A program made the translations under genes and the position numbers. A DNA stretch of 64,000 nt, taken from contig CP006669.1 in assembly GCA_000471925.1 (NCBI GenBank), positions 186,001-250,000 on the forward strand, in the 5' to 3' direction. This document shows positions 48,939-63,318 of this stretch, one piece after another. Numbering within the stretch: position 1 is the stretch's first letter; each line of letters opens with the position of its first letter. Below the pieces are notes generated by a model, which worked only from the letters and a program-made list of their open reading frames with translations, did not search any database and was not told the DNA's origin. This DNA comes from Ralstonia pickettii DTP0602 (GTDB lineage: Bacteria > Pseudomonadota > Gammaproteobacteria > Burkholderiales > Burkholderiaceae).

Positions 48939-50102
48939 GTGTAGCGTTCTGTTCTTGATGGAACTTATATGAATTCGGCGTCTCCAATGCCCTACTGCGA
49001 TACAGCGTGGAGAGAGCGAGTGCGAGTTGCCCCCGAGATCATGTTGACCGACGAGGAGCGAACCAAGTTGACGAGGCTGGTTCGGTCGAAGCTCACGAGC
49101 GTGAGGCTGGCGCAGCGCGCGCGCATTGTGCTGCTGGCCGCCAACGGATTGCAGAACAAGGACATCGCCGAGCAGTTGGGAGTCGGACGCGTGCAGGTCT
49201 CGCGTTGGCGTGAGCGGTATGCGCAATCGGGGCTGGCCGGTATCGAACGCGACTTGCCGCGCGGTGCGCCGCCGGTGAAGGTGGACACGGCGCGGCTGGT
49301 GGAGCTGACCACTCAAACGAAGCCCGTGGCGGCCACGCACTGGAGCACGCGCAAGATGGCCGCCGAGTTGGGCGTGAGCGCCAGCACCGTCATGCGCCAT
49401 TGGCACGCCCACGGGTTGAAGCCGCACATCGTGCGCGGCTTCAAGGTCTCGCGCGATCCGCGGTTCGTCGAGAAGCTTGAAGACATCGTTGGCCTCTACA
49501 TGTCGCCACCCGAGCACGCGCTGGTGCTGTGCTGCGATGAGAAGAGCCAGGTGCAGGCGCTGGATCGCACGCAGCCCGGCTTGCCGTTGAAGAAGGGACG
49601 TGCGGCCACCATGACGCACGACTACAAGCGCAACGGCACGACCACGCTGTTTGCCGCGCTCAACGTGCTCGATGGCCAGGTCATCGCCCAGTGCCAGCAG
49701 CGCCACCGCCATACCGAGTGGCTGAAGTTCCTGCGCAAGATCGACCGCGAGACGCCCAAGGACAAAACGCTGCATCTGATCGCCGACAACTACGCCACCC
49801 ACAAGCATCCTGCGGTGCAAGACTGGCTGGCCAAGCATCCGCGCTTCAACATGCACTTCACGCCCACCTCGGCGTCATGGCTGAACATGGTCGAGCGGTT
49901 CTTTCGCGACATCACGACCGAGCGACTTCGCCGCGGCGTATTCACCAGCGTGCCGGAACTGGTCGACGCCATCAACGAGTACATCGCTCACCACAACACC
50001 AACCCCAAGCCGTTCATCTGGACCAAGAGCGCTCGCGACATCCTACAGAAGGTCATTCGCGCCAACCGCCGCTTAAGTTCCAAACAGAATGGAACATTGC
50101 AC
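48939..50102 (+). mobile_element. IS630-family insertion sequence, second copy type
   Basis: An 1164-bp element flanked by TA at 48937-48938 and 50103-50104. Its ends are 29-bp imperfect inverted repeats (21 of 29 matching) sharing GTTC, TTC and TGGAACTTA. It is unrelated in sequence to the copy at 3.5 kb. On its right is a Bug gene lacking its 5' end; removal of the element plus one TA extends that frame by HILVV into the left flank. The element carries one intact transposase and may be active. Confidence 0.88.
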
Positions 50103-50105
50103 TAG
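48969..50105 (+). CDS. IS630-family transposase
   Basis: A 378-aa transposase: helix-turn-helix (RIVLLAANGLQNKDIAEQLG then GRVQVSRWRERYAQSGLAG), linker SVSASTVMRHWHAHGLKPH-like region, and a DDE domain with ALVLCCDEKSQVQALDRTQP, LHLIADNYATHKHPAVQDWL and FTPTSASWLNMVERFFRDI holding the D, D and E. The start at 48969 is the longest; MLTDEERTKL at 49041 is an alternative closer to usual family length. The TAG stop (50103-50105) is formed by the duplicated target TA plus the next host base, so correct termination depends on the insertion site. Confidence 0.92.
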   Translation: MNSASPMPYCDTAWRERVRVAPEIMLTDEERTKLTRLVRSKLTSVRLAQRARIVLLAANGLQNKDIAEQLGVGRVQVSRWRERYAQSGLAGIERDLPRGAPPVKVDTARLVELTTQTKPVAATHWSTRKMAAELGVSASTVMRHWHAHGLKPHIVRGFKVSRDPRFVEKLEDIVGLYMSPPEHALVLCCDEKSQVQALDRTQPGLPLKKGRAATMTHDYKRNGTTTLFAALNVLDGQVIAQCQQRHRHTEWLKFLRKIDRETPKDKTLHLIADNYATHKHPAVQDWLAKHPRFNMHFTPTSASWLNMVERFFRDITTERLRRGVFTSVPELVDAINEYIAHHNTNPKPFIWTKSARDILQKVIRANRRLSSKQNGTLH

Positions 50106-50977
50106 TGGTACCTGGGCCGCCCGGCGGCATCACTGACCAACTGGGCCGGCTGGTGGCCGCCAGGCTGACGAGCAGTTTTGGCGTCAAGGTCATCGTGGAT
50201 AACCGCCCGGGGGCCGGCGGCAACGTGGCAAGCGAGATCGTTGCGCGGGCCGAGCCCGACGGCTACACGATCCTGCTGGGCACCCAGGGCACCATGGCGA
50301 CCAACCAATATCTGTACAAATCGCTGCGCTTCGACCCGGCGAAGGATTTCGTCGCGGTACATGGACTGATGTCGGTGCCGAACATCCTGGTGGTCAACGG
50401 CCGTTTGCCATATCAATCCGTCAAAGAGCTGGTGACGTTTGCCAAAGCGCATCCCGGCAAGCTGACCGTGTCATCCGCGGGCAACGGCACGGGCACACAC
50501 CTGGCAGCCGAACTGTTCCAGGCCCAGGCCGGCGTGAAGTTCGTGCACATCCCGTACAAGGGCAGTGCACCCTCGATCAACGACCTGATCGGCGGACAGG
50601 TTGATATGACGTTCGACTACCCGGTGTCGACGCTGGCGCAAGTCCAGGCCGGCAAGCTCCGCGCGCTCGCCGTGACAGGGCCCACGCGTCTGCCGCTGCT
50701 GCCGCAGGTGCCAACCATCGCCGAGGCCGGCTATCCCGATGCGCAGTCCACCTCCTGGATCGGGCTGTTTTTCCCAGCCCGCACGTCGACGCCGATCGTC
50801 AAGACATGGCAGGATCAGGTGGGGCGTGTGCTGCAAGACGGCTCGGCGATTGAGGCGATCAGCAAGATGGGGGCCATGCCGCTGCCACTAAGCGGCGAGC
50901 GGTTTGCCAGCTTTGTGCAGGCGGAGCGCATCAAATGGAAATCCACGATTGAGCGTTCTGGGGCAACTATGGATTGA
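50105..50977 (+). pseudogene. Bug/TctC solute-binding gene, 5' end lost at IS630
   Basis: From the IS edge the frame reads VVPGPPGGITDQLGRLVAAR, the family opening, and continues with IVARAEPDGYTILLGTQGTM, FVHIPYKGSAPSINDLIGGQ and a normal C-terminus to 50977. About 290 residues survive; the signal peptide and first strand are missing. Left of the element, after removing it and one TA, the frame continues as CHAHILVV, matching the expected strand, but further upstream no signal peptide is recognisable, so the 5' region was already damaged or differs. The VWA-domain gene downstream has its own start. The fragment should not be exported. Confidence 0.85.
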
Positions 50978-52798: not shown

Positions 52799-53494
52799 TT
52801 ACGCCACGGCAGCCATGCGGCTCCGAAATGCGGCAGCAAAGTCTGCGGCATTGCCGATGTGTTCACGCATGCGTTGTTCAGCGAGGTCCGGATCGCGCGC
52901 TTCGAGTGCATCAATAATTCCCTCAAGCTCGGCGACTGCGTCCTTCATACGCAACGGTGGCGACGGGGTCATCTTCTTGAGCCAACGAAGCTTGTCTAGC
53001 AAGTTAAGCAGGCTCTCGGTCATCAGGCCATTGCCAGCGGTACGGTAAATGGTCGAGTGAAACATTGCATCCAGCTCGTTGAACTCGTCGAACACATCTT
53101 CCTCGAAATCCGAATCGCCCTGGGGCATGAACCGCCGGAAGGCTACCCTGAGTTTGCGCAGTGTCTCATCAGTGATGCGCGTTGCGGCGTGGCGGGTGAC
53201 GTAGGTTTCGAGTAACAGGCGGTACTCGAAGATCTCGTGAATCTCCTGTTCGGTCAGGGACCGCACGTAAGTTCCACTCTGAGGACTCACTGCGATCCAG
53301 CCATCATTCTTAAGCTGCGCAAAAGCCGTGCGTATCGGCGAGCGGCCGCAACCTAGCTCGTCGGCGAGTCGGGCCTCAGACAGCTTCTCGCCTGGCGGAT
53401 AGTGCAGGCTAATGATGCGCTGCTTGATTTCCTTGTAGACGAGAGTCGCGACCGCGGAGCTTTCCGGGATCTTCAACTCGTTGCCGATTTTCAC
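52799..53494 (-). CDS. GntR-family (FCD) regulator of the Rieske operon
   Basis: A regulator of 231 aa from the GTG at 53494 (VKIGNELKIPES), chosen because AGGAG lies six bases before it. ATGs at 53500 and 53599 are in frame but have poor ribosome-binding sites. The winged helix is residues about 15-80 (VYKEIKQRIISLHYPPGEKL, SEARLADELGCGRSPIRTAF) and the FCD domain about 90-220 (EYRLLLETYVTRHAA, MFHSTIYRTAGN, RMREHIGNAADFAAAF). It is divergent from the Bug gene heading the catabolic operon; palindromic CTRGTYGACTAG sites sit at that promoter and at the Rieske promoter, so it probably represses both. Confidence 0.88.
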   Translation of the reverse strand: MKIGNELKIPESSAVATLVYKEIKQRIISLHYPPGEKLSEARLADELGCGRSPIRTAFAQLKNDGWIAVSPQSGTYVRSLTEQEIHEIFEYRLLLETYVTRHAATRITDETLRKLRVAFRRFMPQGDSDFEEDVFDEFNELDAMFHSTIYRTAGNGLMTESLLNLLDKLRWLKKMTPSPPLRMKDAVAELEGIIDALEARDPDLAEQRMREHIGNAADFAAAFRSRMAAVA

Positions 53495-53629
53495 TTGCAT
53501 CTCCTGGTTGGCAAGCGTTTCGCTGCAGTGTGAAATTGTATCAAGGTAGTTGTCCAGTTTAGCGCACGCACGATTCCCCGGTGCCGGTCCTTTGTGCATA
53601 TTACACCGCTTTAGTGCCTAGAAAACATT

Positions 53630-53641
53630 CTAGTTGACTAG
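53630..53641. promoter_or_regulatory. Operator-like palindrome at the Bug promoter
   Basis: CTAGTTGACTAG (arms CTAGT/ACTAG around TG) overlaps a -35-like TTGACT at 53634-53639; TAGGAT follows at 16 bp. It lies between the divergent GntR and Bug genes. A related site with the same centre occurs at 54767-54780. Confidence 0.6.
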
Positions 53642-53691
53642 TTTGGTAATTGATCTAGGATAGTAACGCCCCCACGTAGAGGAGAAACCTT

Positions 53692-54657
53692 ATGTCCTTC
53701 AGTCGTGTCGTCCGCGGTCTGGCGTTGGCCGCCGGGCTGCTGTCCTCGGTTGCTCAAGCCCAATATCCAGACAAGCCGATACGCTTTATCGTGCCGTTCC
53801 CACCGGGAGGTGCGGTCGATGTCCTCGGTCGTGTGTCCGCCAAGTTGATCAGTGACGCGACCCATCAGTCCGTGGTGGTGGATAACGTTGCCGGCGCGGG
53901 CGGCGCCATTGGTTCCAAGATCGCCGCACAAGCAAATCCGGACGGATACACCTTGCTGATGGGCTCCACAAGTTCGTTGTCCATCAATCCGCTCTATCAG
54001 AAGGTGGGCTACGACCCGGTGAAGGACTTCACGCCGATTGCGTTGGTCGCCTCGGTGCCGCATGTGCTGGTCGTCGATCCGGCACTGCCAGTGAACACCC
54101 TTCAGGAGTTCATCGCATATGCCAAGGCGAGGCCCGGCAAGCTGAACTTCGCTTCGTCAGGCCCTGGCACGCCTCATCATGTAGCAGGCGAGATGCTCAA
54201 CCAGCTCGCAGGGGTCAATCTGGTACACGTTCCTTACAAGGGTACGGCGCCAGCATTGGTGGACGTGATGAGCGGTCAAGTGTCGGTGATGTCCGTCGAG
54301 ATCCTGGCCGCAGCTCCCCAAGTGCTGGCGGGGAAGGTGCGAGCTATTGGCATCGCCGCCGACCAACGCAGTCCACTACTACCTAACGTACCAACGACGG
54401 GCGAAGCGGGCCTGAAGGGATTCGAGGTGACTTCGTGGTACGGCGTTGTGGCACCGGCTGGCATTCCGGCGACTGTGGCTAAAAGGCTGTCGGCAGCAGT
54501 GTCGCAAGGCCTGACGTCCCCGGAGGCAGTCGAAAAGCTGAAGACGCTTGGGGCCAGGCCAGTGGGTGGTACGCCAGACCAGTTCCATACATTCCTGCAA
54601 AGTGAAAATCAGAAGTGGGGCAAGGTCATGACCGCTTCCAACATTTCGAACAAGTAG
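53692..54657 (+). CDS. Bug/TctC-family periplasmic solute-binding protein
   Basis: A 321-aa receptor: signal peptide SRVVRGLALAAGLLSSVAQA, family opening YPDKPIRFIVPFPPGGAVDV, LVHVPYKGTAPALVDVMSGQ in the middle. Start 53692 has GGAGAAACCTT upstream. It heads the operon of oxygenase and hydrolase genes and presumably captures their substrate or a related acid. No TctA/TctB genes are near. The 189-bp gap to the Rieske gene contains a second operator-like palindrome, so the downstream genes may also have their own promoter. Confidence 0.88.
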   Translation: MSFSRVVRGLALAAGLLSSVAQAQYPDKPIRFIVPFPPGGAVDVLGRVSAKLISDATHQSVVVDNVAGAGGAIGSKIAAQANPDGYTLLMGSTSSLSINPLYQKVGYDPVKDFTPIALVASVPHVLVVDPALPVNTLQEFIAYAKARPGKLNFASSGPGTPHHVAGEMLNQLAGVNLVHVPYKGTAPALVDVMSGQVSVMSVEILAAAPQVLAGKVRAIGIAADQRSPLLPNVPTTGEAGLKGFEVTSWYGVVAPAGIPATVAKRLSAAVSQGLTSPEAVEKLKTLGARPVGGTPDQFHTFLQSENQKWGKVMTASNISNK

Positions 54658-54766
54658 ACCTTTTGCTGCAGGCGCTCGCGTACCTGCTGCGCGGGCTGCA
54701 GCGAGTCCGCCAACATCCCGTGTTGCCGCTTGACTCCTAAACCCCAGTACCTATTCTCATAATTAT

Positions 54767-54780
54767 ACTGGTCGACTAGT
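54767..54780. promoter_or_regulatory. Operator-like palindrome at the Rieske promoter
   Basis: ACTGGTCGACTAGT is a 14-bp palindrome with one mismatch, overlapping a -10-like TATACT (54764-54769) 67 bp before the Rieske gene. It shares CTRGTYGACTAG with the site at 53630, so both are probably bound by the GntR protein encoded at 52.8 kb. Confidence 0.6.
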
Positions 54781-54846
54781 TCTCCAGATGGTGCAAAAAG
54801 CTCAAACAAGCTACTCAGAGCGCAGCTCAAAAACCGAGGATGACAG

Positions 54847-56031
54847 ATGACTCTCGACATTTTTTCGCCCGAACATTACGCCGCCACCCGCCTGCCGCTG
54901 CATGAAGGTTCGCCCCTGCCGGGCTGGTGCTATACGTCGCCCGAGTGGTATCAGCGGGAAGTTGACACGATGTTCCGCAAGGATTGGCTTTGCGTAGGTC
55001 GTGTGGAGCAGGTGGCCGAGCCGGGCAGCTACTTCTCCATTGAAGTCCTGGATCATCCGCTGATCGTCGTGCGCGACGAAAACAACGAAGTCCGTGTCCA
55101 TTCGGCACTGTGCCGGCACCGGGGCGCCATCATCACCGAGAGCGCAGGCAAGTGTCGCGCCTTCACGTGTCCGTACCACAGCTGGACCTACGCTCCGAGC
55201 GGCAAACTGCTTGGCACGCCAGGTACTCCGCCGCCGATGGCTGGCGTCGCCGGCTTCAAGGCATCGGAGCACGGTCTGCGGTCGATCCGCAGCGGCATCT
55301 GGGCCGGCTTCATCTTCATTACGTTCAATGCGGACGCCGAGCCGCTGATGACCTGGCTGGGTGATTTGCCGGCATACATGGCCAGCCACAAGCTCGATGA
55401 AATGCAATGGACGCACCGCGACGAGTATGTCGTCGACTGCAACTGGAAGGTGTGGCTCGAAAACGCCTTCGAGAACTACCACGTCCCGACCATTCACCGG
55501 AAGCACGTCGATCCCAAGAATCCGCAGAACTGGCAGTTCGAGAAGACCCAAGGTCCGTGGGAAGCGATGTACAGCAGGCGAAGCATCGTTGCTTACTCCG
55601 GGCTGCCTGAGGTCCCGGGGATTGATGCGGACAAGGCGAACTGCCTCTTTCACATCTGGGTGCAGCCGACTCTGCAGATCATCGTGACTTCGTCCTACAT
55701 GAAGTTCCGACAGTACTTCCCCGAGGGTCCGGAGAAACTCCGGCTGTACGAAAACTGGACATTCCCCCGCAGTACCGTGGAGCGCGCCGATTTCGACGAG
55801 ATCGTCGGGCCGGCGTACTACGAGAAATACTCACAGGTCGTCATCGAGGACCTGAGCATCAATCCTAACGTGCAGAAGGCAATGCGTACCGGCGCCTACG
55901 AACCTGGCCGCTTCTCGCTCGAAGAATACATCGTGCACCGCATTGCCAACCACGTTCTCGATCGCGTCGTTGGGCCCGACTCCGAATCCTCGCGCCAGAA
56001 CCGTGAAGGTCCTGCATTGAAGGCTGCTTGA
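54847..56031 (+). CDS. Rieske-type ring/quaternary-amine oxygenase, alpha subunit
   Basis: A 394-aa oxygenase. The Rieske [2Fe-2S] ligands are Cys89, His91 (LCRHRGA) and Cys108, His111 (CPYHSW). The catalytic domain carries the mononuclear iron pair His212 and His217 in NWKVWLENAFENYHVPTIHR, with Glu205 in the position of the bridging acid of carnitine/choline-type oxygenases. It is a single-subunit alpha type without a beta subunit gene. The matching reductase gene is two genes downstream. Substrate is not determined; the bridging glutamate and the operon content favour a small N-containing or carboxylate compound over an aromatic ring. Start 54847 has GAGGATGACAG upstream. Confidence 0.92.
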   Translation: MTLDIFSPEHYAATRLPLHEGSPLPGWCYTSPEWYQREVDTMFRKDWLCVGRVEQVAEPGSYFSIEVLDHPLIVVRDENNEVRVHSALCRHRGAIITESAGKCRAFTCPYHSWTYAPSGKLLGTPGTPPPMAGVAGFKASEHGLRSIRSGIWAGFIFITFNADAEPLMTWLGDLPAYMASHKLDEMQWTHRDEYVVDCNWKVWLENAFENYHVPTIHRKHVDPKNPQNWQFEKTQGPWEAMYSRRSIVAYSGLPEVPGIDADKANCLFHIWVQPTLQIIVTSSYMKFRQYFPEGPEKLRLYENWTFPRSTVERADFDEIVGPAYYEKYSQVVIEDLSINPNVQKAMRTGAYEPGRFSLEEYIVHRIANHVLDRVVGPDSESSRQNREGPALKAA

Positions 56032-56066
56032 GCAACGCATCTCGCCCAACTCTCGGAGAAATATCT

Positions 56067-57092
56067 ATGTTGTCCACCGCAATGAGCCGCCAATATTCGG
56101 AGGCGGATCCGCTTCACGTCCACATCGAGAACTCGCGCACGATGATGCCGGTGTTCACCGTGCGACCCGACCAATACGAGGCGGCACTGTCGCGTCATCC
56201 GGACGTCGCGAAGCGCATCCGCACGACGTGGGGCAGTGATCAGGACATCTATCAGGCTGCGATGCAGACCGCCGATGCGATGATCACTTATCGGTTTCCG
56301 TACAAATCGCTGGGCAGCGACGCCAGGCGATTGAAACTGCTGCAGATCCTGGGCGCTGGCGTGGACTACCTGCTGCCACTGGACTGGGTGCCGATGGGCA
56401 TTCAAGTGCTGACTAACAGTGGTGCTCACCTTCCCAAAGCCGCGCAGTCCGGCCTGATGGCGCTCCTGATGGTCAATGCGCGGATGCCGGCGCTCATGTG
56501 GAACCACCGTCGGCATGCCTGGGACCGTCAGTTCACGTCCGCCCTGAATGGCAAGACGGTGCTGATCGTGGGCGTGGGCTCAATTGGTGGGGGCATCGCA
56601 GAGCTCGCCAGGCAGTTCGGTATGCATGTCATCGGCATCCGCCGCAGCGGTGCGGCCCACCCTCATGTCGACAGCATGCATAAGCCGGAGGAGCTCCATA
56701 CACTTCTGCCGCAGGCCGACTTCGTGCTCCTGAACACGGCTCTTACGGATGAAACGCGTTTCCTGATCGGTGCCGACGAAATCGAACGCATGCGTACCGG
56801 CGCTGGCCTGATCAACATGTCTCGCGGGGGCCTGATTGACCCGGCTGCGCTGGATGTGGCGCTACGGGCCGGAAAGCTTAGTGGCGCCATGATTGACGTA
56901 ACCTATCCAGAGCCGCCGCCCGCCGATTGGCGTTACTGGGAAACGCCCAACCTGGTGATCACTCCCCATGTGCTGTCCGATGACATCGAGCACTACATTC
57001 CCCATACGCTGGATCTGTTCTTCAGCAATATTCGGCGCCACTTCAATGGCGAGCCGCTGACCAACCTGGTCGATGTGTCGCGCAGCTACTGA
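56067..57092 (+). CDS. D-2-hydroxyacid dehydrogenase (NAD-dependent)
   Basis: A 341-aa dehydrogenase: NAD-binding VLIVGVGSIGGGIAELARQF, catalytic Arg in GLINMSRGGLIDPAALDVAL, Glu in DVTYPEPPPADW and His in LVITPHVLSDD. The N-terminal substrate domain (ILGAGVDYLLPLDWVPMGIQ) is that of the GhrA-like group acting on glyoxylate, hydroxypyruvate and related acids. The start at 56067 (MLSTAMSRQ) has CGGAGAAATATCT, a good ribosome-binding site; an upstream frame start at 56028 overlaps the Rieske gene by 4 bp. In this operon it may reduce or oxidise an alpha-keto or hydroxy acid made from the oxygenase product. Confidence 0.88.
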   Translation: MLSTAMSRQYSEADPLHVHIENSRTMMPVFTVRPDQYEAALSRHPDVAKRIRTTWGSDQDIYQAAMQTADAMITYRFPYKSLGSDARRLKLLQILGAGVDYLLPLDWVPMGIQVLTNSGAHLPKAAQSGLMALLMVNARMPALMWNHRRHAWDRQFTSALNGKTVLIVGVGSIGGGIAELARQFGMHVIGIRRSGAAHPHVDSMHKPEELHTLLPQADFVLLNTALTDETRFLIGADEIERMRTGAGLINMSRGGLIDPAALDVALRAGKLSGAMIDVTYPEPPPADWRYWETPNLVITPHVLSDDIEHYIPHTLDLFFSNIRRHFNGEPLTNLVDVSRSY

Positions 57093-57106
57093 TAGGAGTC
57101 AATATC

Positions 57107-58072
57107 ATGAGTCAGGCTACCGACGAGCTTCGCCTGGTCAAGGTCGCGGCGAAGCACGAGGTCGCGACCGACATTGTGCAGTTCGACCTATGTGCTGCGG
57201 ACGGTCGGCCCCTGCCGCCGTTTGCCGCCGGCGCGCACATCGATGTGCATACGCCGTCTGGTCTCGTGAGACAGTATTCCCTGTGCGGATTGCCAGGCAA
57301 TACCGAGCGGTACAAGATCGCAGTCAAGCATGAGCGGGGCGGTCGTGGCGGTTCCGCTAGCTTGCACGGCAATGTCGAGGTGGGCAGTGCGTTGGGCATT
57401 TCCGCACCACGCAATCATTTCCCGCTTGCCGATGATGCGGCGCACACGATATTCGTGGCGGGCGGCATCGGCATCACGCCCATCCTCGCGATGATCTCGA
57501 GCTTAGAGCTGGCCGGAAAGTCCTGGGAACTGCACTACTGTGCGCGATCGGAAAGGCATGCTGCGTACCATGCAGAACTGATGGAGCGCCATCCGGACAG
57601 CGTCACCGAGTACTTCAGCGAGACACCCACCTTTCCGGTACAGGAGGTCGTCAGCAAGATGGCGGCATCGCGGGCGAACGTACATCTGTATTGCTGTGGT
57701 CCGGCCGGACTGATGCATGCCGTAGAAGCCGCGACGCCTGAGACCATCGCGTCGCGTGTGCATTTCGAATGGTTCGCCGCGCCGCAAGGCGCTGGCACGC
57801 CCAATGAACCATTTGAGATCCAACTCGCGTCGAACGGGAAGGTGTTTCCCGTATCCGCGGAGGAGACGGCGCTGGAGGTGCTACGCGCCCATGGCATCGA
57901 CATCCCGAGCAGTTGTGAGGAGGGGGTATGTGGCACCTGCGAAGTTCGCGTGCTGTCAGGATGCATTGAGCATCGCGACGTGCTCCTCAGTGAGGCAGAA
58001 CGCCAAAGCAACAAATGCATGATGACTTGCGTGTCCCGCGGCCAGCGCGAGCGCATTGTCCTCGACCTTTAG
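57107..58072 (+). CDS. Oxygenase reductase (ferredoxin-NAD reductase, VanB-like)
   Basis: A 321-aa reductase. FMN/FAD-binding region with VRQYSLCGLPGN, NAD-binding GGIGITPILAMISSLEL, and a C-terminal plant-type [2Fe-2S] domain with CEEGVCGTCEVRVLSG and CMMTCVSRGQ (four Cys ligands). It supplies electrons from NADH to the Rieske oxygenase in the same operon, forming a class IA two-component system. AGGAG at 57094-57098 precedes the ATG at 57107. The gene follows the dehydrogenase after 14 bp. Confidence 0.93.
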   Translation: MSQATDELRLVKVAAKHEVATDIVQFDLCAADGRPLPPFAAGAHIDVHTPSGLVRQYSLCGLPGNTERYKIAVKHERGGRGGSASLHGNVEVGSALGISAPRNHFPLADDAAHTIFVAGGIGITPILAMISSLELAGKSWELHYCARSERHAAYHAELMERHPDSVTEYFSETPTFPVQEVVSKMAASRANVHLYCCGPAGLMHAVEAATPETIASRVHFEWFAAPQGAGTPNEPFEIQLASNGKVFPVSAEETALEVLRAHGIDIPSSCEEGVCGTCEVRVLSGCIEHRDVLLSEAERQSNKCMMTCVSRGQRERIVLDL

Positions 58073-58092
58073 ACCGGCCGACTGGAGAAATG

Positions 58093-59250
58093 ATGGAATC
58101 CACCACACCAAACGAGTACATTCCCTCGCTGCGCCGCGTCGGTCATACGGTCTATGTAGGTATGCAACTGCCCGTCTCCGCAAGCGGCGAGATCGACATT
58201 GCCGAACAGACCGACCAGGTCTTCCGCAGTCTTGTTGCGCGCCTCGAAGAGGCGGGCGGCAGCATGGCGGACCTTACCAAGCTCCATACGTACTACTTGT
58301 TTGAGGGAGATGGGGCAGCCATTACTGAGTATTGGGAGCGTATGACGGCAGTGCGCCTGCGGCATCTCGTCAATCCCGGGCCGGCGGCTACTGCGCTGCG
58401 TGTCCAAGGGGTAGGGCGAGAACAAGCACTGATCGCAGTCGACGGCATTGCAGAACTCAGCAGCGACAAGGAGCGCATCATGCCTGAGCATGCGTGGGAC
58501 TGGAGTATTCCGACGCCGTTCTCACAGGGCTGGCGCGTGGGCGAAAAGGTGTACGTCGGCGGTCAGATATCGGCGGACCGGCAGGGCCGTACGATCGCCC
58601 CGGGCAGTGTGGTCGAGCAAACGAAGAACACGCTCGAATACATCGAGCATGTTTTGCGCGACGCGCAGACGAACTGGTCCAATGTGTGCGCATTGAAAAT
58701 AGCGTACAAGCATGGGACTGACCCCGAGGCATCCCGGCAGCTCGGCGAGCAGATACTTGCGGAAGTCGTGCGTCGCCTCCCGGCACATAAGCCCGCTATC
58801 ACGATCATCGGTGTCGACCTGTTATACGAAGGTCTGCTGCTTGAGATTGACGCGGTTGCGTCCAAGGACATCGGTCTGCCGATCTGGCCAGAGATCGAAT
58901 CTTCGCCGCAGACGACTACCCGGACCTCCTCACCCGGATGGCTCAGCGGTGGCGAGTTGCACGTTGGCGCTCAGGCAAATCCGGATGCCATTGATCTGGG
59001 GACGCAGCTCGAGGGGGCGCTGTCACAGGTCGCGGCAGTGCTGCGAGCGGCAGGTGGTTCCGTTACGGATCTTGTCAAGCTCAACGTGTTCCTGTTGCCG
59101 GGCGAATCTGCCGACGCGGTCCAGCAGATGCTCAAGCAATTCCTTGCGCCGGGCCGTACCGTAGTCAGCATCGTCCAGGTCGCCGGCTTCCTGCTTGACG
59201 GCCAGCGTGTGCAGGTTGATGGTGTGGCCTTACTGGAGGAGGGGGCATGA
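58093..59250 (+). CDS. Three-domain RidA/YjgF-family protein
   Basis: A 385-aa protein with three RidA-like domains: about 5-125 (VGHTVYVGMQLPVSASGEID, DQVFRSLVARLEEAGGSM), 130-260 (VGEKVYVGGQISADRQGRTI, NTLEYIEHVLRDAQTN) and 275-385 (SGGELHVGAQANPDAIDLGT, VAAVLRAAGGSVTDLVKLNV). RidA proteins are homotrimers that hydrolyse reactive enamines/imines, so three tandem domains may fold as a covalent pseudo-trimer. The active arginine of archetypal RidA (ARSCVEV) is not evident in any domain (AATALRV, PAITIIGV, TVVSIVQV), so it is of the non-archetypal Rid groups. The M20 hydrolase gene overlaps its stop by 4 bp. Start 58093 is better spaced from GGAG than 58090. Confidence 0.87.
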   Translation: MESTTPNEYIPSLRRVGHTVYVGMQLPVSASGEIDIAEQTDQVFRSLVARLEEAGGSMADLTKLHTYYLFEGDGAAITEYWERMTAVRLRHLVNPGPAATALRVQGVGREQALIAVDGIAELSSDKERIMPEHAWDWSIPTPFSQGWRVGEKVYVGGQISADRQGRTIAPGSVVEQTKNTLEYIEHVLRDAQTNWSNVCALKIAYKHGTDPEASRQLGEQILAEVVRRLPAHKPAITIIGVDLLYEGLLLEIDAVASKDIGLPIWPEIESSPQTTTRTSSPGWLSGGELHVGAQANPDAIDLGTQLEGALSQVAAVLRAAGGSVTDLVKLNVFLLPGESADAVQQMLKQFLAPGRTVVSIVQVAGFLLDGQRVQVDGVALLEEGA

Positions 59251-60359
59251 TCGATGCTGTCAGCCTTACCCAGGAACTGGTTAGGATTCCGTCAGTCAAT
59301 CCGCCTGGCGACGAAGAGCGCTGCGCACGCTATCTTGCAGGGTTGCTGGCCGACGCCGGCTTTAGTGTGGAACTGGATGTCTTCGGTCCGCAACGATTCA
59401 ACCTGGTAGCAGCGCTGCACGGCAAAGGCGACGGCAAGCCGCTCGGGTTCACCGGGCACCTCGACACCGTGCCCCTCGGTGCGGCGCGGTGGGCGCGCGA
59501 CCCCTTTAGCGCCGAGATCATTGATGGCAAGCTGTTCGGCCGCGGCAGCAGCGACATGAAGGCCGGCATTGCCGCGTTCGTCGTTGCGTGCTGGCAGGCG
59601 CGCGAAGCGCTTCGCGAAGGTAACGGTGTGCGCCTGCTACTGACCGGCGGGGAAGAAACTGGATGTGATGGTGCGCGTGCGCTCGCCGCCAATGGAAAGG
59701 CTGGGCAGCCGCTCTCTCTCCTCATCGTTGGCGAGCCTACGGCCAACTACCCGTGCATCGGACACAAAGGCGCCCTTTGGCTTGAGGGCGTTGCGCTCGG
59801 AAAGACCGCACACGGTTCGATGCCAGAAAAGGGCGAAAATGCGATCTACAAGGCCACGCGAGCCATCGAGACATTGCGCGAGATGCGGTTGGAAGACCAT
59901 CATCCGCTCATGGGCCGGGCAACGCTGAACGTTGGTACGTTCCACGCCGGCCTTAACATCAACTCCGTTCCGGACCGGGCGACGTTCACCGTCGACCTGC
60001 GGACTGTACCCGGTATGGAGCACGATTGCCTGTGCAGAAAACTCAGAAGCCTGTTGGGTAACGGCATAGCGGTTGATCCGCTTGTCGACGTGCCACCCCT
60101 GCATTCTGAAGCCGGGGATCCGGCCATTGCTGCAGTGTTCGGCATCTGCGCGCAGTATCACGATGCACCGCTATTCCCGCGTACCGTTCCTTTCTTCACA
60201 GATGGCAGCACGCTACGTCCACTTACAGGTGACCCTCCGACCGTAATTCTTGGGCCAGGCGAGCCGGCAATGGCGCATCAAACCGACGAGTACTGTCATA
60301 CCGCTCGCATCGACCAAGCGGTCGGCATCTACCAATCAATCATCGAGGCCCGGTGCTGA
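59247..60359 (+). CDS. M20-family hydrolase (ArgE/DapE-like)
   Basis: A 370-aa metallohydrolase of the ArgE/DapE/CPG2 group: FTGHLDTVPLGAARWARDPF (His/Asp ligands), GRGSSDMKAGIAAFV (bridging Asp), LTGGEETGCDGARAL (Glu), and LFPRTVPFFTDGSTL in the C-terminal lid. It removes an acyl group or cleaves a peptide-like bond in the cytoplasm. Translationally coupled (ATGA) to the three-domain RidA gene. It may release the final acid or amine from the oxygenase product. Exact substrate is open. Confidence 0.9.
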   Translation: MIDAVSLTQELVRIPSVNPPGDEERCARYLAGLLADAGFSVELDVFGPQRFNLVAALHGKGDGKPLGFTGHLDTVPLGAARWARDPFSAEIIDGKLFGRGSSDMKAGIAAFVVACWQAREALREGNGVRLLLTGGEETGCDGARALAANGKAGQPLSLLIVGEPTANYPCIGHKGALWLEGVALGKTAHGSMPEKGENAIYKATRAIETLREMRLEDHHPLMGRATLNVGTFHAGLNINSVPDRATFTVDLRTVPGMEHDCLCRKLRSLLGNGIAVDPLVDVPPLHSEAGDPAIAAVFGICAQYHDAPLFPRTVPFFTDGSTLRPLTGDPPTVILGPGEPAMAHQTDEYCHTARIDQAVGIYQSIIEARC

Positions 60360-60689: not shown

Positions 60690-60800
60690 CTCAAGCGACG
60701 GACAGCCTGAGGGGGGCTGCCCAATGGTACGCACGAATGCGCGCCTCATTCGCTCCCGGTCAGAAAAACCCACTTCGTGCGCAATCACGTCCAGCGAGAC
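60690..60800 (-). pseudogene. AraC-family regulator, C-terminal fragment
   Basis: On the minus strand the frame reads DVIAHEVGFSDRERMRRAFV then RTIGQPPSG, the second helix-turn-helix and end of an AraC/GlxA-type DNA-binding domain. No start or N-terminal part is present; on its other side it abuts an MFS transporter fragment transcribed in the opposite direction. A relic of a regulator, probably once divergent from the transporter. Confidence 0.65.
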
Positions 60801-61396
60801 ATGCGGATCGCGCTTACCTTGCTAACTTCGTTATTCGCGTTCGGCGGGTTCCTGATGGTCTACACGTATGCGGGCGTGGTGCTGGAGCCCGTGACGCGCG
60901 GCGACGAACGCATTCTCGCGGGGATGTTCCTGTTGTGGGGCGTCGCCGCGACGGTCGGGAACCTGCTGTCCGGCCGCCTCGTGGACCGGTTCGAGAGCCG
61001 CAACATTATCAATGCGATGCAATGGGTCGCCATCATCAATTTCTGTGCGCTGCCGTGGACCGATGCGCATGCGTCCAGCGCTGTCATCGCGCTGGCCATC
61101 TGGGGGATATGCGGATGGGGGCTCATCGTTCCGCAACAGCACCGACTCGTGCAACTGTCGCCGCATGTGGCGCCGCTGCTGCTCGCCCTGAACAATACGG
61201 CCCTACATCGGACTTGCCTGCTCGGGCGTGCTTGGCGGTGTAGTGCTCCGGTCGACAGGCGGGCAGTATCTGAGTCTCATCGCGGCCGCGTTGATTGCGA
61301 TGGCTTTCGTTCTCGTCGCGGCCGCACATCGTTGCATGGAGCGGCCGCGTATGCAGCATCGCGCGACGGCCAGCCGCGAGACCGCGCCTGTCTGAT
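60801..61396 (+). pseudogene. MFS transporter fragment with a -1 frameshift
   Basis: The frame reads MRIALTLLTSLFAFGGFLMV, then LAGMFLLWGVAATVGNLLSG and VIALAIWGICGWGLIVPQQH to LLLALNNTAL; the family then continues in another frame as GLACSGVLGGVVLRSTGGQY and SLIAAALIAMAFVLV to a stop at 61396. One base is missing near 61206 (family NNTALYIGLA). Only the C-terminal half of the transporter (about six membrane segments) is present. The 5' half is replaced by the AraC fragment. Confidence 0.75.
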
Positions 61397-61712
61397 TCGT
61401 CGACGCCGCCTCGCTCTCAAGCGCCGTTACAACCAACGCTTATGGCGCGCGTTGGCGGTTCGCGCTCACGCCCAGCGGGCCCTGCTGTTCGACGTGGACA
61501 ATGCCATTTAGAACCTGAACCAAACAGGTGCGGACGACCGGGCGCGGCTGACGTTGATTCGCTGCCACCACAACCTGCTGAGGCAGTGGGGCGAAACCTG
61601 AACGCAAGCCTCGGTCGGTCAGCGAGTCGAGTTTGCGCCCCCCCGAGATGTGAACGAGGCCTCACCGGTGCCTGACCCGGCCGCGCCGTGCGACCCCGGC
61701 TCGTAGCAACGC
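61397..61712. other. Intergenic region, no gene supported
   Basis: About 315 bp between the MFS remnant and the cytochrome gene. Short frames on both strands (for example ending LLFDVDNAI at 61511) lack start signals and family sequence. No terminator hairpin was identified. Confidence 0.4.
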
Positions 61713-63014
61713 TCACAGCGACTTCAGATACTCGGCCAGGTCGGCAATATCCTGGCTGCTCAGCCCCAGTCCCTGCTTCGTGTTGTAGGTCTTCACGACA
61801 TCCGACAAAGTCGCCGCAGACCCATCATGAAAATAGGGGGCGTGTTGCCACACGCCCTTTAGTGGCGTGGTCCGGTATTGCTTGGTCGCGGAGCGTGAGG
61901 CGTAGCTTGGGGTTTCCGGCTCGGCCATAGAGTCGGCAGGCGGATGCAGGACCGAGTTGGCATCTGTAAATGCCGGGCCACTATGGCACGTGGCGCATCG
62001 GCCCGCCCCTTCGAAAACAATCTTACCTCGCAATGCCGCCGCGGAGTCGAAACTGCCTGCCGGCGCCGGTGGAGCGCCCAGGGATAGCTGGTACGCTTGC
62101 AGGGCCGGAAGCTTACTAGTAAGGAGATCTTCCGATCCATGCGTGATGGAAAGATTCAGCCGTGGCTCGGATACGGAGCCAAGGCCGCCCATTTCGGCCA
62201 CGGCGACATAACGGTTCCAGTACATGAGGTCTTCGCCATCGCCGGTATAGGTAATGCGATGAATGCCGTCCAGCCCGAAGGCGGGAGGTATCACGACCGG
62301 CTTGCTGAGGCCGTCGACATTGTTCCGGGGGTCGAACTTGCCTGCGCCCCAGGCATTGAGGACCGTCTTCATGGCGTCGTCAACGGCGGGCGACAGCGCG
62401 ATGATGGCGCCGGGATTCAGATCGCGATTGGGCCATCCGTCCAGTCGCTTGCCGATGCCCGGCGCGAACGAGTTGTCCACCGTCGAATGGCATAGCGCGC
62501 AGGTAATGCCGACCCGAGTGAGCTTGTCCACCCCATTGACCGTCTCGACGGTCCCCTTGATGCCGACGACCGCGTTCAGTTTCAGCAGCGCCACCGTCGT
62601 GGCCGGACTATTGAGGTCGATCGTGCCATTGCGGATTCCATTCACGACCGCCTCGGGCAAGGCCTCGGCGTCCACCTTAAGCCCGACTGACATTGCGGTC
62701 ACGGGATCCACCGCGCTGGCGATAACCTCGTGCATCTTCAGGTTATCGGTCCACTGCACTTCGTCCCCGAAGGTATCGAAGCGGAAGATCTGCTTGCCCT
62801 GCTCGACGAGGGCATTCTGGGCCGCTGCCGTGCCGGCTGCGTCAGCTCCTCCGCCTCCAGAGCCGCCGCCGCATGCCGTGACTGCCGCCACCACGATCGC
62901 CGTTGTTATTGCATTCACCAGACCGCGTCGAGGCATCCCCTCCATCGCCGGATGCCGCAGCGGCACAGGCTGCATTTGCGTTTCAGGTATCAGCGCGGAG
63001 GGTTGCTTCTTCAT
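61713..63014 (-). CDS. Di-haem cytochrome c peroxidase-like lipoprotein
   Basis: A 433-aa exported protein. The N-terminus has a basic region, a hydrophobic core LVNAITTAIVVAAVTACGGG with a lipobox-like cysteine at 48, then a glycine-rich linker (GGGSGGGG). Haem motifs are CALCH (172-176) and CATCH about residue 350 in GAGRCATCHSGPAFTDANSV, followed by FHDGSAATLSDVVKTYNTKQ. Start 63014 (MKKQPSALIPE) was chosen to give a usual signal; the open frame continues to 63143. It is divergent from the ECF sigma-factor gene. Function is probably a periplasmic or outer-membrane redox protein or peroxidase. Confidence 0.82.
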   Translation of the reverse strand: MKKQPSALIPETQMQPVPLRHPAMEGMPRRGLVNAITTAIVVAAVTACGGGSGGGGADAAGTAAAQNALVEQGKQIFRFDTFGDEVQWTDNLKMHEVIASAVDPVTAMSVGLKVDAEALPEAVVNGIRNGTIDLNSPATTVALLKLNAVVGIKGTVETVNGVDKLTRVGITCALCHSTVDNSFAPGIGKRLDGWPNRDLNPGAIIALSPAVDDAMKTVLNAWGAGKFDPRNNVDGLSKPVVIPPAFGLDGIHRITYTGDGEDLMYWNRYVAVAEMGGLGSVSEPRLNLSITHGSEDLLTSKLPALQAYQLSLGAPPAPAGSFDSAAALRGKIVFEGAGRCATCHSGPAFTDANSVLHPPADSMAEPETPSYASRSATKQYRTTPLKGVWQHAPYFHDGSAATLSDVVKTYNTKQGLGLSSQDIADLAEYLKSL

Positions 63015-63318
63015 GATCGACGTCCTTGTCAGGATGAGATGGGGCAATTGACATGGAGGCAACCGACATGTCTCCGACGGCAGTCGCTCGAAAGTATCCG
63101 TTGCATATGTCTTTAGACGCTGGCGGACGCGCAAAGGTGACACGAGGCCCGAGCCACATTGCGATTGGATGTGACGGGTGCGTTCGCCTATGATTGCTGA
63201 CGTGTGGTTCGACCCGAGGCCCGGGATCGCAGCCGGCTACCGTCCGTGCCCCAGTCCTCTGTCACCTTTTCGCAGATGCGCGCGTCTAATGATCAGGAAC
63301 GGGAGCGACATCTCCAAT
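63015..63318. other. Divergent intergenic region
   Basis: About 300 bp between the di-haem cytochrome gene (leftward) and the ECF sigma-factor gene (rightward). No palindrome or gene was recognised; both promoters should be here. Confidence 0.4.

What the first reader, a model, noticed from the sequence alone, without database searches (positions are those of the whole stretch)
53494..60359. GntR-controlled Rieske/hydroxyacid dehydrogenase/RidA/M20 operon with matched operators
Seen: Bug receptor, Rieske oxygenase, GhrA-like D-2-hydroxyacid dehydrogenase, NADH-[2Fe-2S] reductase, three-domain RidA protein and M20 hydrolase in a row, with tight spacing or 4-bp overlaps in the last three genes and a divergent GntR regulator. 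A palindrome of form CTRGTYGACTAG occurs both at the Bug/GntR promoter (53630) and the Rieske promoter (54767). Family knowledge: Rieske oxygenases of the carnitine/choline type act on N-containing small molecules; RidA removes imine/enamine intermediates; M20 enzymes hydrolyse amides. Inference: a pathway oxidising an N-acyl or quaternary N compound through a reactive imine, which I do not recognise as a described route.
Basis: partly seen in the sequence, partly recalled or inferred. Interest (0 to 1): 0.7.

Follow-up and report, generated by a model that had tools for sequence, protein, structure and literature searches.

The report
Uncharacterised Rieske-oxygenase catabolic operon
A bacterium carries a rare, switch-controlled set of genes that looks built to take up and break down an unknown, probably nitrogen-containing acid; the genetic switch is well supported, but the compound is unknown and one enzyme lacks the residue its textbook role needs.

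Summary
The gene row and both palindromes are real. CTAGTTGACTAG (53630-53641) and CTGGTCGACTAG (54768-54779) are the only exact CTAG-bearing copies outside an ORF in the 8.1-Mb genome. The motif is conserved: in the 200 bp before the Rieske gene it is exact in 6 of 12 loci and within one mismatch in 9 of 12 (shuffle means 0.002, 0.044). All 10 loci with a GntR homolog have it; the 2 without do not. Rieske adjoins a D-2-hydroxyacid dehydrogenase in 12 of 12 loci; reductase 8, Bug 7, three-domain Rid 4, M20 4.

The Rieske model is nearest carnitine monooxygenase CntA and has its bridging Glu, but Ala stands where known quaternary-amine enzymes have an aromatic or Asn. The Rid protein is predicted as a chorismatase-like chain whose three domains lack the deaminase arginine. 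That weakens "quaternary N through an imine". I favour a GntR-repressed catabolic module: Rieske oxidation next to N or a carboxylate, a 2-oxo/2-hydroxy acid step, amide cleavage by M20. Substrate unknown; no listed paper described the set.

The parts
52799..53599 (-). GntR-family regulator with FCD domain, divergent from Bug; the true start may lie near 53503 (inference)
   Evidence: PF00392 and PF07729 above cut-off; homologs 48-88% identical in 9 other loci
53630..53641 (.). operator 1, CTAGTTGACTAG, between the divergent GntR and Bug genes; it contains a -35-like TTGACT
53692..54657 (+). Bug/TctC extracytoplasmic solute receptor
   Evidence: PF03401, 253.6 bits; before Rieske in 7 of 12 loci
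54768..54779 (.). operator 2, CTGGTCGACTAG, 67 bp before the Rieske start codon
54847..56031 (+). Rieske non-haem iron oxygenase, alpha subunit only; motif NWKVWLENAFENYH..TIH, bridging E209, A207
   Evidence: PF00355 and PF00848; Foldseek best hit CntA 6y9d
56067..57092 (+). D-2-hydroxyacid dehydrogenase; ORF opens at TTG 56028, likelier start ATG 56067
   Evidence: PF02826; adjacent to Rieske in 12 of 12 loci; start site
57107..58072 (+). phthalate-dioxygenase-reductase type NADH reductase (flavin, NAD, C-terminal [2Fe-2S])
   Evidence: PF00175, PF00111; 2pia phthalate dioxygenase reductase E 7.2e-66
58090..59250 (+). three tandem Rid domains in one chain, none with the deaminase arginine at its canonical place
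59247..60359 (+). M20 (ArgE/DapE family) amidohydrolase
   Evidence: TIGR01910 230.9 bits, cut-off 217.6; PF01546 and PF07687

Best explanation
This is a rare, sparsely distributed catabolic module for a small, probably nitrogen-containing carboxylate. Without substrate, the FCD-type GntR protein binds the two palindromes and holds back both the Bug receptor promoter and the enzyme operon promoter; the substrate or an intermediate releases it. The Bug protein captures the compound. The Rieske monooxygenase, fed with electrons by its own reductase, oxidises a carbon next to nitrogen and/or a carboxylate. The product is, or collapses to, a 2-oxo or 2-hydroxy acid that the tightly coupled D-2-hydroxyacid dehydrogenase converts. 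The M20 enzyme hydrolyses an amide bond on the substrate or a fragment. The three-domain Rid protein is a single-chain pseudo-trimer that probably speeds a hydrolysis or tautomerisation other than arginine-dependent imine hydrolysis. Shown here: gene content, operator conservation, constancy of the Rieske-dehydrogenase pair in close relatives, and the active-site substitutions. Inferred: repression, direction of each reaction, substrate class.
For: Gene families. Rieske + dehydrogenase adjacent in 12 of 12 close loci, and a dehydrogenase of this family near Rieske in 2 of 4 distant plasmid relatives fetched for their rank (H1, H2 yes; H3, H5 no), against 0 of 6 from a spread listing. Operator conservation with shuffle control and uniqueness of the CTAG form in the genome. 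Operator within one mismatch in 10 of 10 loci that hold a GntR homolog and 0 of 2 that lack one in the fetched stretch. Some relatives lie beside other N-compound enzymes: a gene annotated nitrilotriacetate monooxygenase with dehydrogenase and an ArgE-type enzyme, hydantoinase A/B with M20 and a Bug protein, M20, Rieske and Bug on a Variovorax plasmid, Rieske-RidA with the dehydrogenase 3.5 kb further on. Foldseek ranks CntA and then stachydrine demethylase first for the Rieske model.
Against: No substrate is identified; neighbours outside the core differ between loci (thiamine-PP enzyme and aldehyde dehydrogenase, acyl-CoA synthetase, OHCU decarboxylase), so substrates may differ. Rid and M20 are each missing from 8 of the 12 loci (two of the loci, L002 and L003, are short contig ends). 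L005 and L007 show neither GntR nor operator. The reductase is not seen in 4 of 12 loci (one, L003, ends within the dehydrogenase gene). Away from the close loci the links loosen: of 4 dehydrogenase relatives fetched by their own search, only 1 has a Rieske gene beside it, and a distant one; of 3 M20 relatives only 1; of 2 Rid relatives none. The nitrogen in the substrate rests on enzyme families, not on data. L004 and L008 look alike in all matches, so the 12 loci are about 11 independent ones.
Confidence: 0.5

Rival explanations
1. One reading: an N-acyl or quaternary-N compound is oxidised to a reactive imine, which the RidA protein hydrolyses, with M20 removing an acyl group.
For: Nearest solved relatives of the Rieske model act on quaternary amines; Rid and M20 genes sit in the same operon; single-domain RidA genes directly follow Rieske genes on two other plasmids (the second was fetched because its label showed RidA).
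Against: No Arg at the deaminase position in any of the three domains in 50 of 50 aligned sequences. Ala replaces the cation-binding aromatic or Asn in 40 of 40 Rieske sequences. The three-domain Rid gene is found in only 4 of 12 loci.
Confidence: 0.15
2. Alpha-oxidation: the Rieske enzyme hydroxylates the carbon next to a carboxylate, the dehydrogenase oxidises the D-2-hydroxyacid to a 2-oxo acid and returns the NADH spent by the oxygenase; the 2-oxo acid is then decarboxylated and the aldehyde oxidised. Nitrogen need not be involved.
For: The dehydrogenase is the one constant partner (12 of 12). In Ramlibacter a thiamine-PP enzyme and an aldehyde dehydrogenase follow the M20 gene on the same strand, and a Rhodobacteraceae plasmid has Rieske-dehydrogenase and, 3 kb on, a gene scoring as 5-guanidino-2-oxopentanoate decarboxylase subfamily.
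Against: No such genes follow in the part of the window that I annotated; the Ramlibacter pair is followed by its own Bug and GntR genes and may be a separate unit. M20 and Rid would have no obvious role.
Confidence: 0.2
3. Plain quaternary-ammonium pathway (carnitine, choline or betaine type).
For: Bridging Glu 40 of 40, best Foldseek hit CntA, some sources name close homologs choline monooxygenase.
Against: Neither the group Va aromatic nor the Vb Asn; glycine betaine monooxygenase model 132.7 bits against a cut-off of 670; no aldehyde dehydrogenase in this operon.
Confidence: 0.07
4. Aromatic or heteroaromatic carboxylate degradation, with the Bug protein importing the ring acid and the Rieske enzyme hydroxylating it.
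For: Bug receptors for aromatic acids are known (recalled); by sequence the Rieske domain matches aromatic dioxygenases well; locus L002 has xanthine-dehydrogenase-like and isochorismatase genes.
Against: No beta subunit, diol dehydrogenase or ring-cleavage gene in the operon; over the catalytic half the only PDB sequence hits, both insignificant (E 0.47 and 0.75), are 3n0q and CntA.
Confidence: 0.08

Closest known systems
CntAB carnitine monooxygenase (group Va Rieske oxygenase, PMC7948474)
   Same: single-subunit oxygenase, bridging Glu, nearest solved fold (TMq 0.74-0.77, about 20% identity), flavin/NADH/[2Fe-2S] reductase partner
   Different: Ala instead of the cation-binding Tyr/Phe; partnered with a D-2-hydroxyacid dehydrogenase
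GbcAB / Stc2 betaine demethylases (group Vb)
   Same: fold (stachydrine demethylase 4quq ranks 7th) and bridging Glu region (3n0q)
   Different: Ala instead of Asn at the same place; far below the GbcA cut-off
3x-RidA proteins (PMC4433059, passages seen)
   Same: three tandem Rid domains, presumed covalent trimer
   Different: the deaminase Arg position is filled by non-Arg residues in all three domains; whether the described 3x-RidA proteins keep it was not checked
Chorismatases (4bps, 5a3k)
   Different: about 16% identity; set in a catabolic operon; no residue test of chorismate binding done
FBXO22 C-terminal region and cyanuric acid hydrolase fold
   Different: 7-10% identity; cyanuric acid hydrolase at 5 A rmsd; no shared catalytic residues tested
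FCD-type GntR repressors
   Same: domains and a short palindromic operator near the promoters
   Different: effector unknown; none of the 20 NCBIfam models listed reached its cut-off

Membership tests
Group V quaternary-ammonium Rieske oxygenases | bridging glutamate between Rieske and mononuclear iron sites | tested here: met
   E209 in 40 of 40 aligned sequences; aligned with CntA; role from PMC7948474
Group V quaternary-ammonium Rieske oxygenases | Tyr/Phe (Va) or Asn (Vb) two residues before the bridging Glu | tested here: not met
   A207 in 40 of 40; CntA shows Tyr and 3n0q Asn; rule from PMC7948474 section 6. Three of the 40 rows (L005-L007) came from a scan that used ENAFENY as a search word
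Group V quaternary-ammonium Rieske oxygenases | oxidises a quaternary amine | not testable with these tools
   needs enzyme assay
Rieske non-haem iron oxygenases | Rieske and catalytic domains with iron ligands 2 His 1 Asp | tested here: met
   PF00355, PF00848; H212, H217, D335 each 40 of 40; their role as ligands is by homology to CntA, recalled
Rid superfamily | Rid domain fold | tested here: met
RidA-type imine/enamine deaminases | active-site Arg (Arg105 of RidA) | tested here: not met
   A99, I236 and V358 at that place; R355 lies 3 residues before it in domain 3 and is Arg in 27 and Lys in 5 of the 38 closest rows, so domain 3 is the least certain
3x-RidA | three tandem Rid domains in one chain | tested here: met
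   description from PMC4433059
Chorismatases | converts chorismate; conserved active site | not tested
   only the fold was compared
D-2-hydroxyacid dehydrogenases | family NAD-binding domain | tested here: met
   PF02826 158.7 bits; catalytic Arg/Glu/His seen by eye only, motif recalled
ArgE/DapE M20 deacylases | TIGR01910 curated cut-off | tested here: met
   230.9 against 217.6 bits; the equivalogs among the 25 of 51 families shown stay below their cut-offs, so the substrate is not named
FCD GntR regulators | GntR wHTH plus FCD domain | tested here: met
FCD GntR regulators | binds the palindrome in front of its targets | not testable with these tools
   conservation supports it; binding not shown

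The most novel reading that the evidence does not exclude
A new clade of Rieske monooxygenases, defined by an Ala at the cation-binding place and a constant D-2-hydroxyacid dehydrogenase partner, performs oxidative C-N cleavage of an N-substituted or N-acyl amino acid to a 2-oxo acid. A three-domain Rid protein without the deaminase arginine carries a new hydrolytic or ring-opening activity in that pathway, closer to chorismatase or cyanuric acid hydrolase than to RidA.
Probability: 0.2. Interest if true: 0.65.

Novelty: new variant of a known kind. Interest (0 to 1): 0.42.

Why it matters
Rieske monooxygenases cleave C-N and C-O bonds in many nutrients and pollutants, yet the substrate rules rest on a few solved enzymes. 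Here is a coherent set of relatives with a distinct active-site signature, a constant dehydrogenase partner and a testable operator-regulator pair, so its substrate can be hunted through the regulator. The arginine-free three-domain Rid protein gives a concrete case for what Rid proteins do when they are not imine deaminases, a question the Rid papers seen here leave open.

Tried and rejected
Quaternary-amine reading: considered because of the fold match, lowered because A207 replaces the signature residue. Imine removal by Rid: lowered after domain-by-domain alignment. I first took the domain 3 Arg (R355) for the catalytic one; strand positions in the model and the alignment to PA3499 put V358 at that place.

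Genome-wide operator search with the symmetrised pattern gave hardly any excess over its reversed control (30 against 27); only the CTAG-containing subset is informative, and that split was made after seeing the list. Promoter and terminator scans were no better than chance.

A search for homarine operons returned one unrelated paper; the riboflavin-catabolism paper (passages) uses a different gene set. Purine or ectoine links (L007 OHCU decarboxylase; Mesorhizobium three-domain Rid protein beside ectoine-hydrolase-like and DoeB-like genes below their cut-offs) were seen but not in the other close loci I annotated. The ORF between M20 and Rieske in Variovorax SRS16 is not a Rid protein by profile comparison. 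Viral contigs gave no relative; a near-identity search in plasmids found none. The truncated MFS gene in the window has no tblastn hit at E 1e-3 in the fetched loci.

Selections: alignments used 35 of the 120 listed Rieske homologs plus the window and 4 loci (A4), and 49 of the 120 listed Rid homologs plus the window (A3). The 38-row count leaves out the 12 most distant rows; over all 50 rows the three positions also hold no Arg (Ala, Gly, Thr, Ser; Leu, Gly, Ile, Val, Ala; Val, Ala, Leu, Gly, Ile). The scan used two peptide patterns, one of them ENAFENY, so its 8 loci are not a full list and favour that motif. Of the plasmid Rieske hits I fetched H1, H2, H3, H5 (not H4) as best-ranked, H14 because its label showed RidA (left out of counts), and H86-H91 of ten spread rows as control (not H84 = H1, H85, H92, H93). 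One control (L063) has an annotated M20 gene nearby that my M20 query did not hit. Of the dehydrogenase hits I fetched H35, H36, H37, H40 of 25 listed; of M20 hits H59, H73, H75 of 25; of Rid hits H21, H23 of 13.
Full report
CHECK OF THE OBSERVATION. Both palindromes exist; the second begins at 54768.

REGULATION. In the 200 bp before the Rieske gene of 12 loci (window; L001-L008; G003, G035 and G802) it is exact in 6 and within one mismatch in 9; 500 rounds of dinucleotide shuffling gave means of 0.002 and 0.044, at most 1. Before the Bug gene it is exact in 5 of 7 and within one mismatch in 6 of 7. In L003, where Rieske follows Bug closely, only the Bug site is present. Ten loci carry a GntR homolog and all ten have an operator within one mismatch before Rieske or Bug; L005 and L007 show neither within the 9 kb fetched on each side. 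In the whole 8.1-Mb genome 30 places fit the pattern exactly, hardly more than the reversed control's 27, but only three contain CTAG: the two here and one inside an ORF that I recognise as pstS. In G003 a third copy lies 29 bp before the ORF of a flavoprotein dehydrogenase, with an HdrB-like gene about 0.8 kb after it; the flavoprotein is not found in G000, G802 or G035 at E 1e-80.

WHAT TRAVELS TOGETHER. In the 12 loci the dehydrogenase adjoins Rieske in 12 (in L003 only its first 75 residues fit on the contig), GntR is present in 10 (in L001 about 8 kb away), the reductase in 8, Bug before Rieske in 7, the three-domain Rid protein in 4 (window, L002, G003, G802), M20 in 4 (window, L001, G003, G035), and the whole set in 2 (window, G003). 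L004 and L008 look alike in all matches; L002 and L003 are short contigs. So the core is Rieske + dehydrogenase, usually with reductase, regulator and receptor; Rid and M20 are accessories. Distant plasmid relatives repeat part of the theme: Roseovarius has Rieske-RidA and the dehydrogenase (41%) 3.5 kb on; Caballeronia has Rieske followed by a D-2-hydroxyacid-dehydrogenase family gene and an amidohydrolase; Gemmobacter and Kozakia do not. In six lower-ranked Rieske loci none had a dehydrogenase or Rid hit at E 1e-4. Searches that start from the other genes give looser links: a Rieske gene beside 1 of 4 fetched dehydrogenase relatives, 1 of 3 M20 relatives and 0 of 2 Rid relatives.

DISTRIBUTION. 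Matches at E 1e-100 or better: 2 of 399 genomes of the order and 1 of 398 of the phylum, the source genome included. Of 40 relatives, all have some Rieske match at E 0.001, but only the source, G003 (93%) and G035 (69%) have this one. In the family, 5 of 299 at E 1e-60, three of them (source, G003, G802) at 88% identity or more and two at 33%. The Rid protein at E 1e-60: 3 of 60 genomes of the genus, 1 of 399 of the order. Named relatives of the Rid protein include Cupriavidus, so the source is probably Cupriavidus or close to it; this is inference. The patchy spread from Burkholderiaceae to Acetobacteraceae suggests horizontal transfer; no tree was made.

RIESKE ENZYME. By sequence the Rieske domain resembles aromatic dioxygenases, but the AlphaFold model (pLDDT 87.8) matches CntA first and stachydrine demethylase next. 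PMC7948474 (passages and section 6 seen) gives two marks of quaternary-amine enzymes: a bridging Glu, and two residues earlier Tyr/Phe (group Va) or Asn (Vb). The alignments show Tyr in CntA and Asn in 3n0q; this family has Glu (40 of 40) and Ala (40 of 40). The 40 are the window, 35 of the 120 listed homologs, three loci and the 35%-identical second Rieske of G035. The enzyme thus looks like group V in its electron-transfer residue but fails the substrate mark. The reductase matches phthalate dioxygenase reductase and P450-fused reductases of that type best.

M20 AND DEHYDROGENASE. M20 passes the ArgE/DapE subfamily cut-off but none of the equivalog cut-offs among the families shown. Its relatives sit beside hydantoinase A/B and a Bug protein (Variovorax RA8), near Rieske and Bug genes (Variovorax SRS16) and beside a glutamine amidotransferase (Pantoea). 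The dehydrogenase's relatives include one near a gene annotated nitrilotriacetate monooxygenase and beside an ArgE-type enzyme (Rhizobium) and one between a distant Rieske gene and a gene annotated 2-hydroxy-3-oxopropionate reductase. From recalled chemistry, nitrilotriacetate monooxygenase releases glyoxylate, which a dehydrogenase of this family can reduce; this is the analogy behind the C-N cleavage proposal and is inference.

MECHANISM. Most likely: induction by substrate through GntR; capture by Bug; Rieske oxidation next to N or carboxylate; 2-oxo/2-hydroxy acid step by the dehydrogenase; amide hydrolysis by M20; an unknown helper reaction by the Rid protein. Gene content and operator conservation rest on data above; repression and the chemistry are inference. 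Loci differ in outer neighbours: a thiamine-PP enzyme and aldehyde dehydrogenase in Ramlibacter, an acyl-CoA synthetase of the ADP-forming type in G802 (Pfam) and, judged only from the N-terminal sequence, in L004, L006 and L008. The end product may therefore differ.

LITERATURE. Five searches for this gene set and one for homarine operons of open PubMed Central papers listed none whose title or abstract start describes it; I saw 20 of 103 papers, and subscription journals are not covered. Papers beyond those cited were seen only as listings, except PMC6449761, PMC12746152 and PMC10949508, of which I saw passages.

VERDICT. Real, coherent, with a well-conserved operator and, as far as I could search, uncharacterised, but made of known families: a new variant of a known kind, with one sound lead (the Ala-signature Rieske + dehydrogenase pair) and one oddity (the arginine-free three-domain Rid protein).

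Noticed in passing
window 48969-50977: A transposase-like ORF (48969-50105, by eye) runs up to a second TctC/Bug gene whose reading frame has no normal signal-peptide start; it looks truncated by the insertion.
   Followed up: partly
window 60777-61511: MFS transporter fragment: matches only profile positions 206-339 of MFS_1, just downstream of the operon; probably a remnant.
   Followed up: partly
L019:1353-4968 (genome G003): A third exact operator 29 bp before the ORF of a fumarate-reductase-like flavoprotein, with an HdrB/CCG gene further on: possible extra regulon member; the flavoprotein is not found in the window's genome.
   Followed up: partly
L020:14442-18709 (genome G035): Right next to the orthologous operon lies a second, divergent module: Rieske (34%), D-2-hydroxyacid dehydrogenase (41%), separate [2Fe-2S] ferredoxin and Bug.
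   Followed up: partly
L048:7557-14760 (Mesorhizobium sp. B2-1-8 plasmid): A full-length three-domain Rid relative sits beside an ectoine-hydrolase-like M24 enzyme and a DoeB-like deacetylase (both below their curated cut-offs), hinting at a Rid role in an ectoine-like pathway.
   Followed up: partly
L047:7838-9431 (Paracoccus sp. SCSIO 75233 plasmid): Rid-family gene overlapping an M20 gene (39% to the window's), then an adenine-deaminase-like and a cyclase-family gene: Rid-M20 pairing without a Rieske gene in the stretch shown.
   Followed up: no
L057:8158-9210 (Variovorax sp. SRS16 plasmid 3): A 350-aa protein with no Pfam or NCBIfam match at E 0.001 lies between an M20 gene and a Rieske gene; by eye (recalled) it resembles NicX-type dioxygenases.
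   Followed up: no
window 61713-63143: RoxA-like / cytochrome c family protein on the minus strand downstream of the operon.
   Followed up: no
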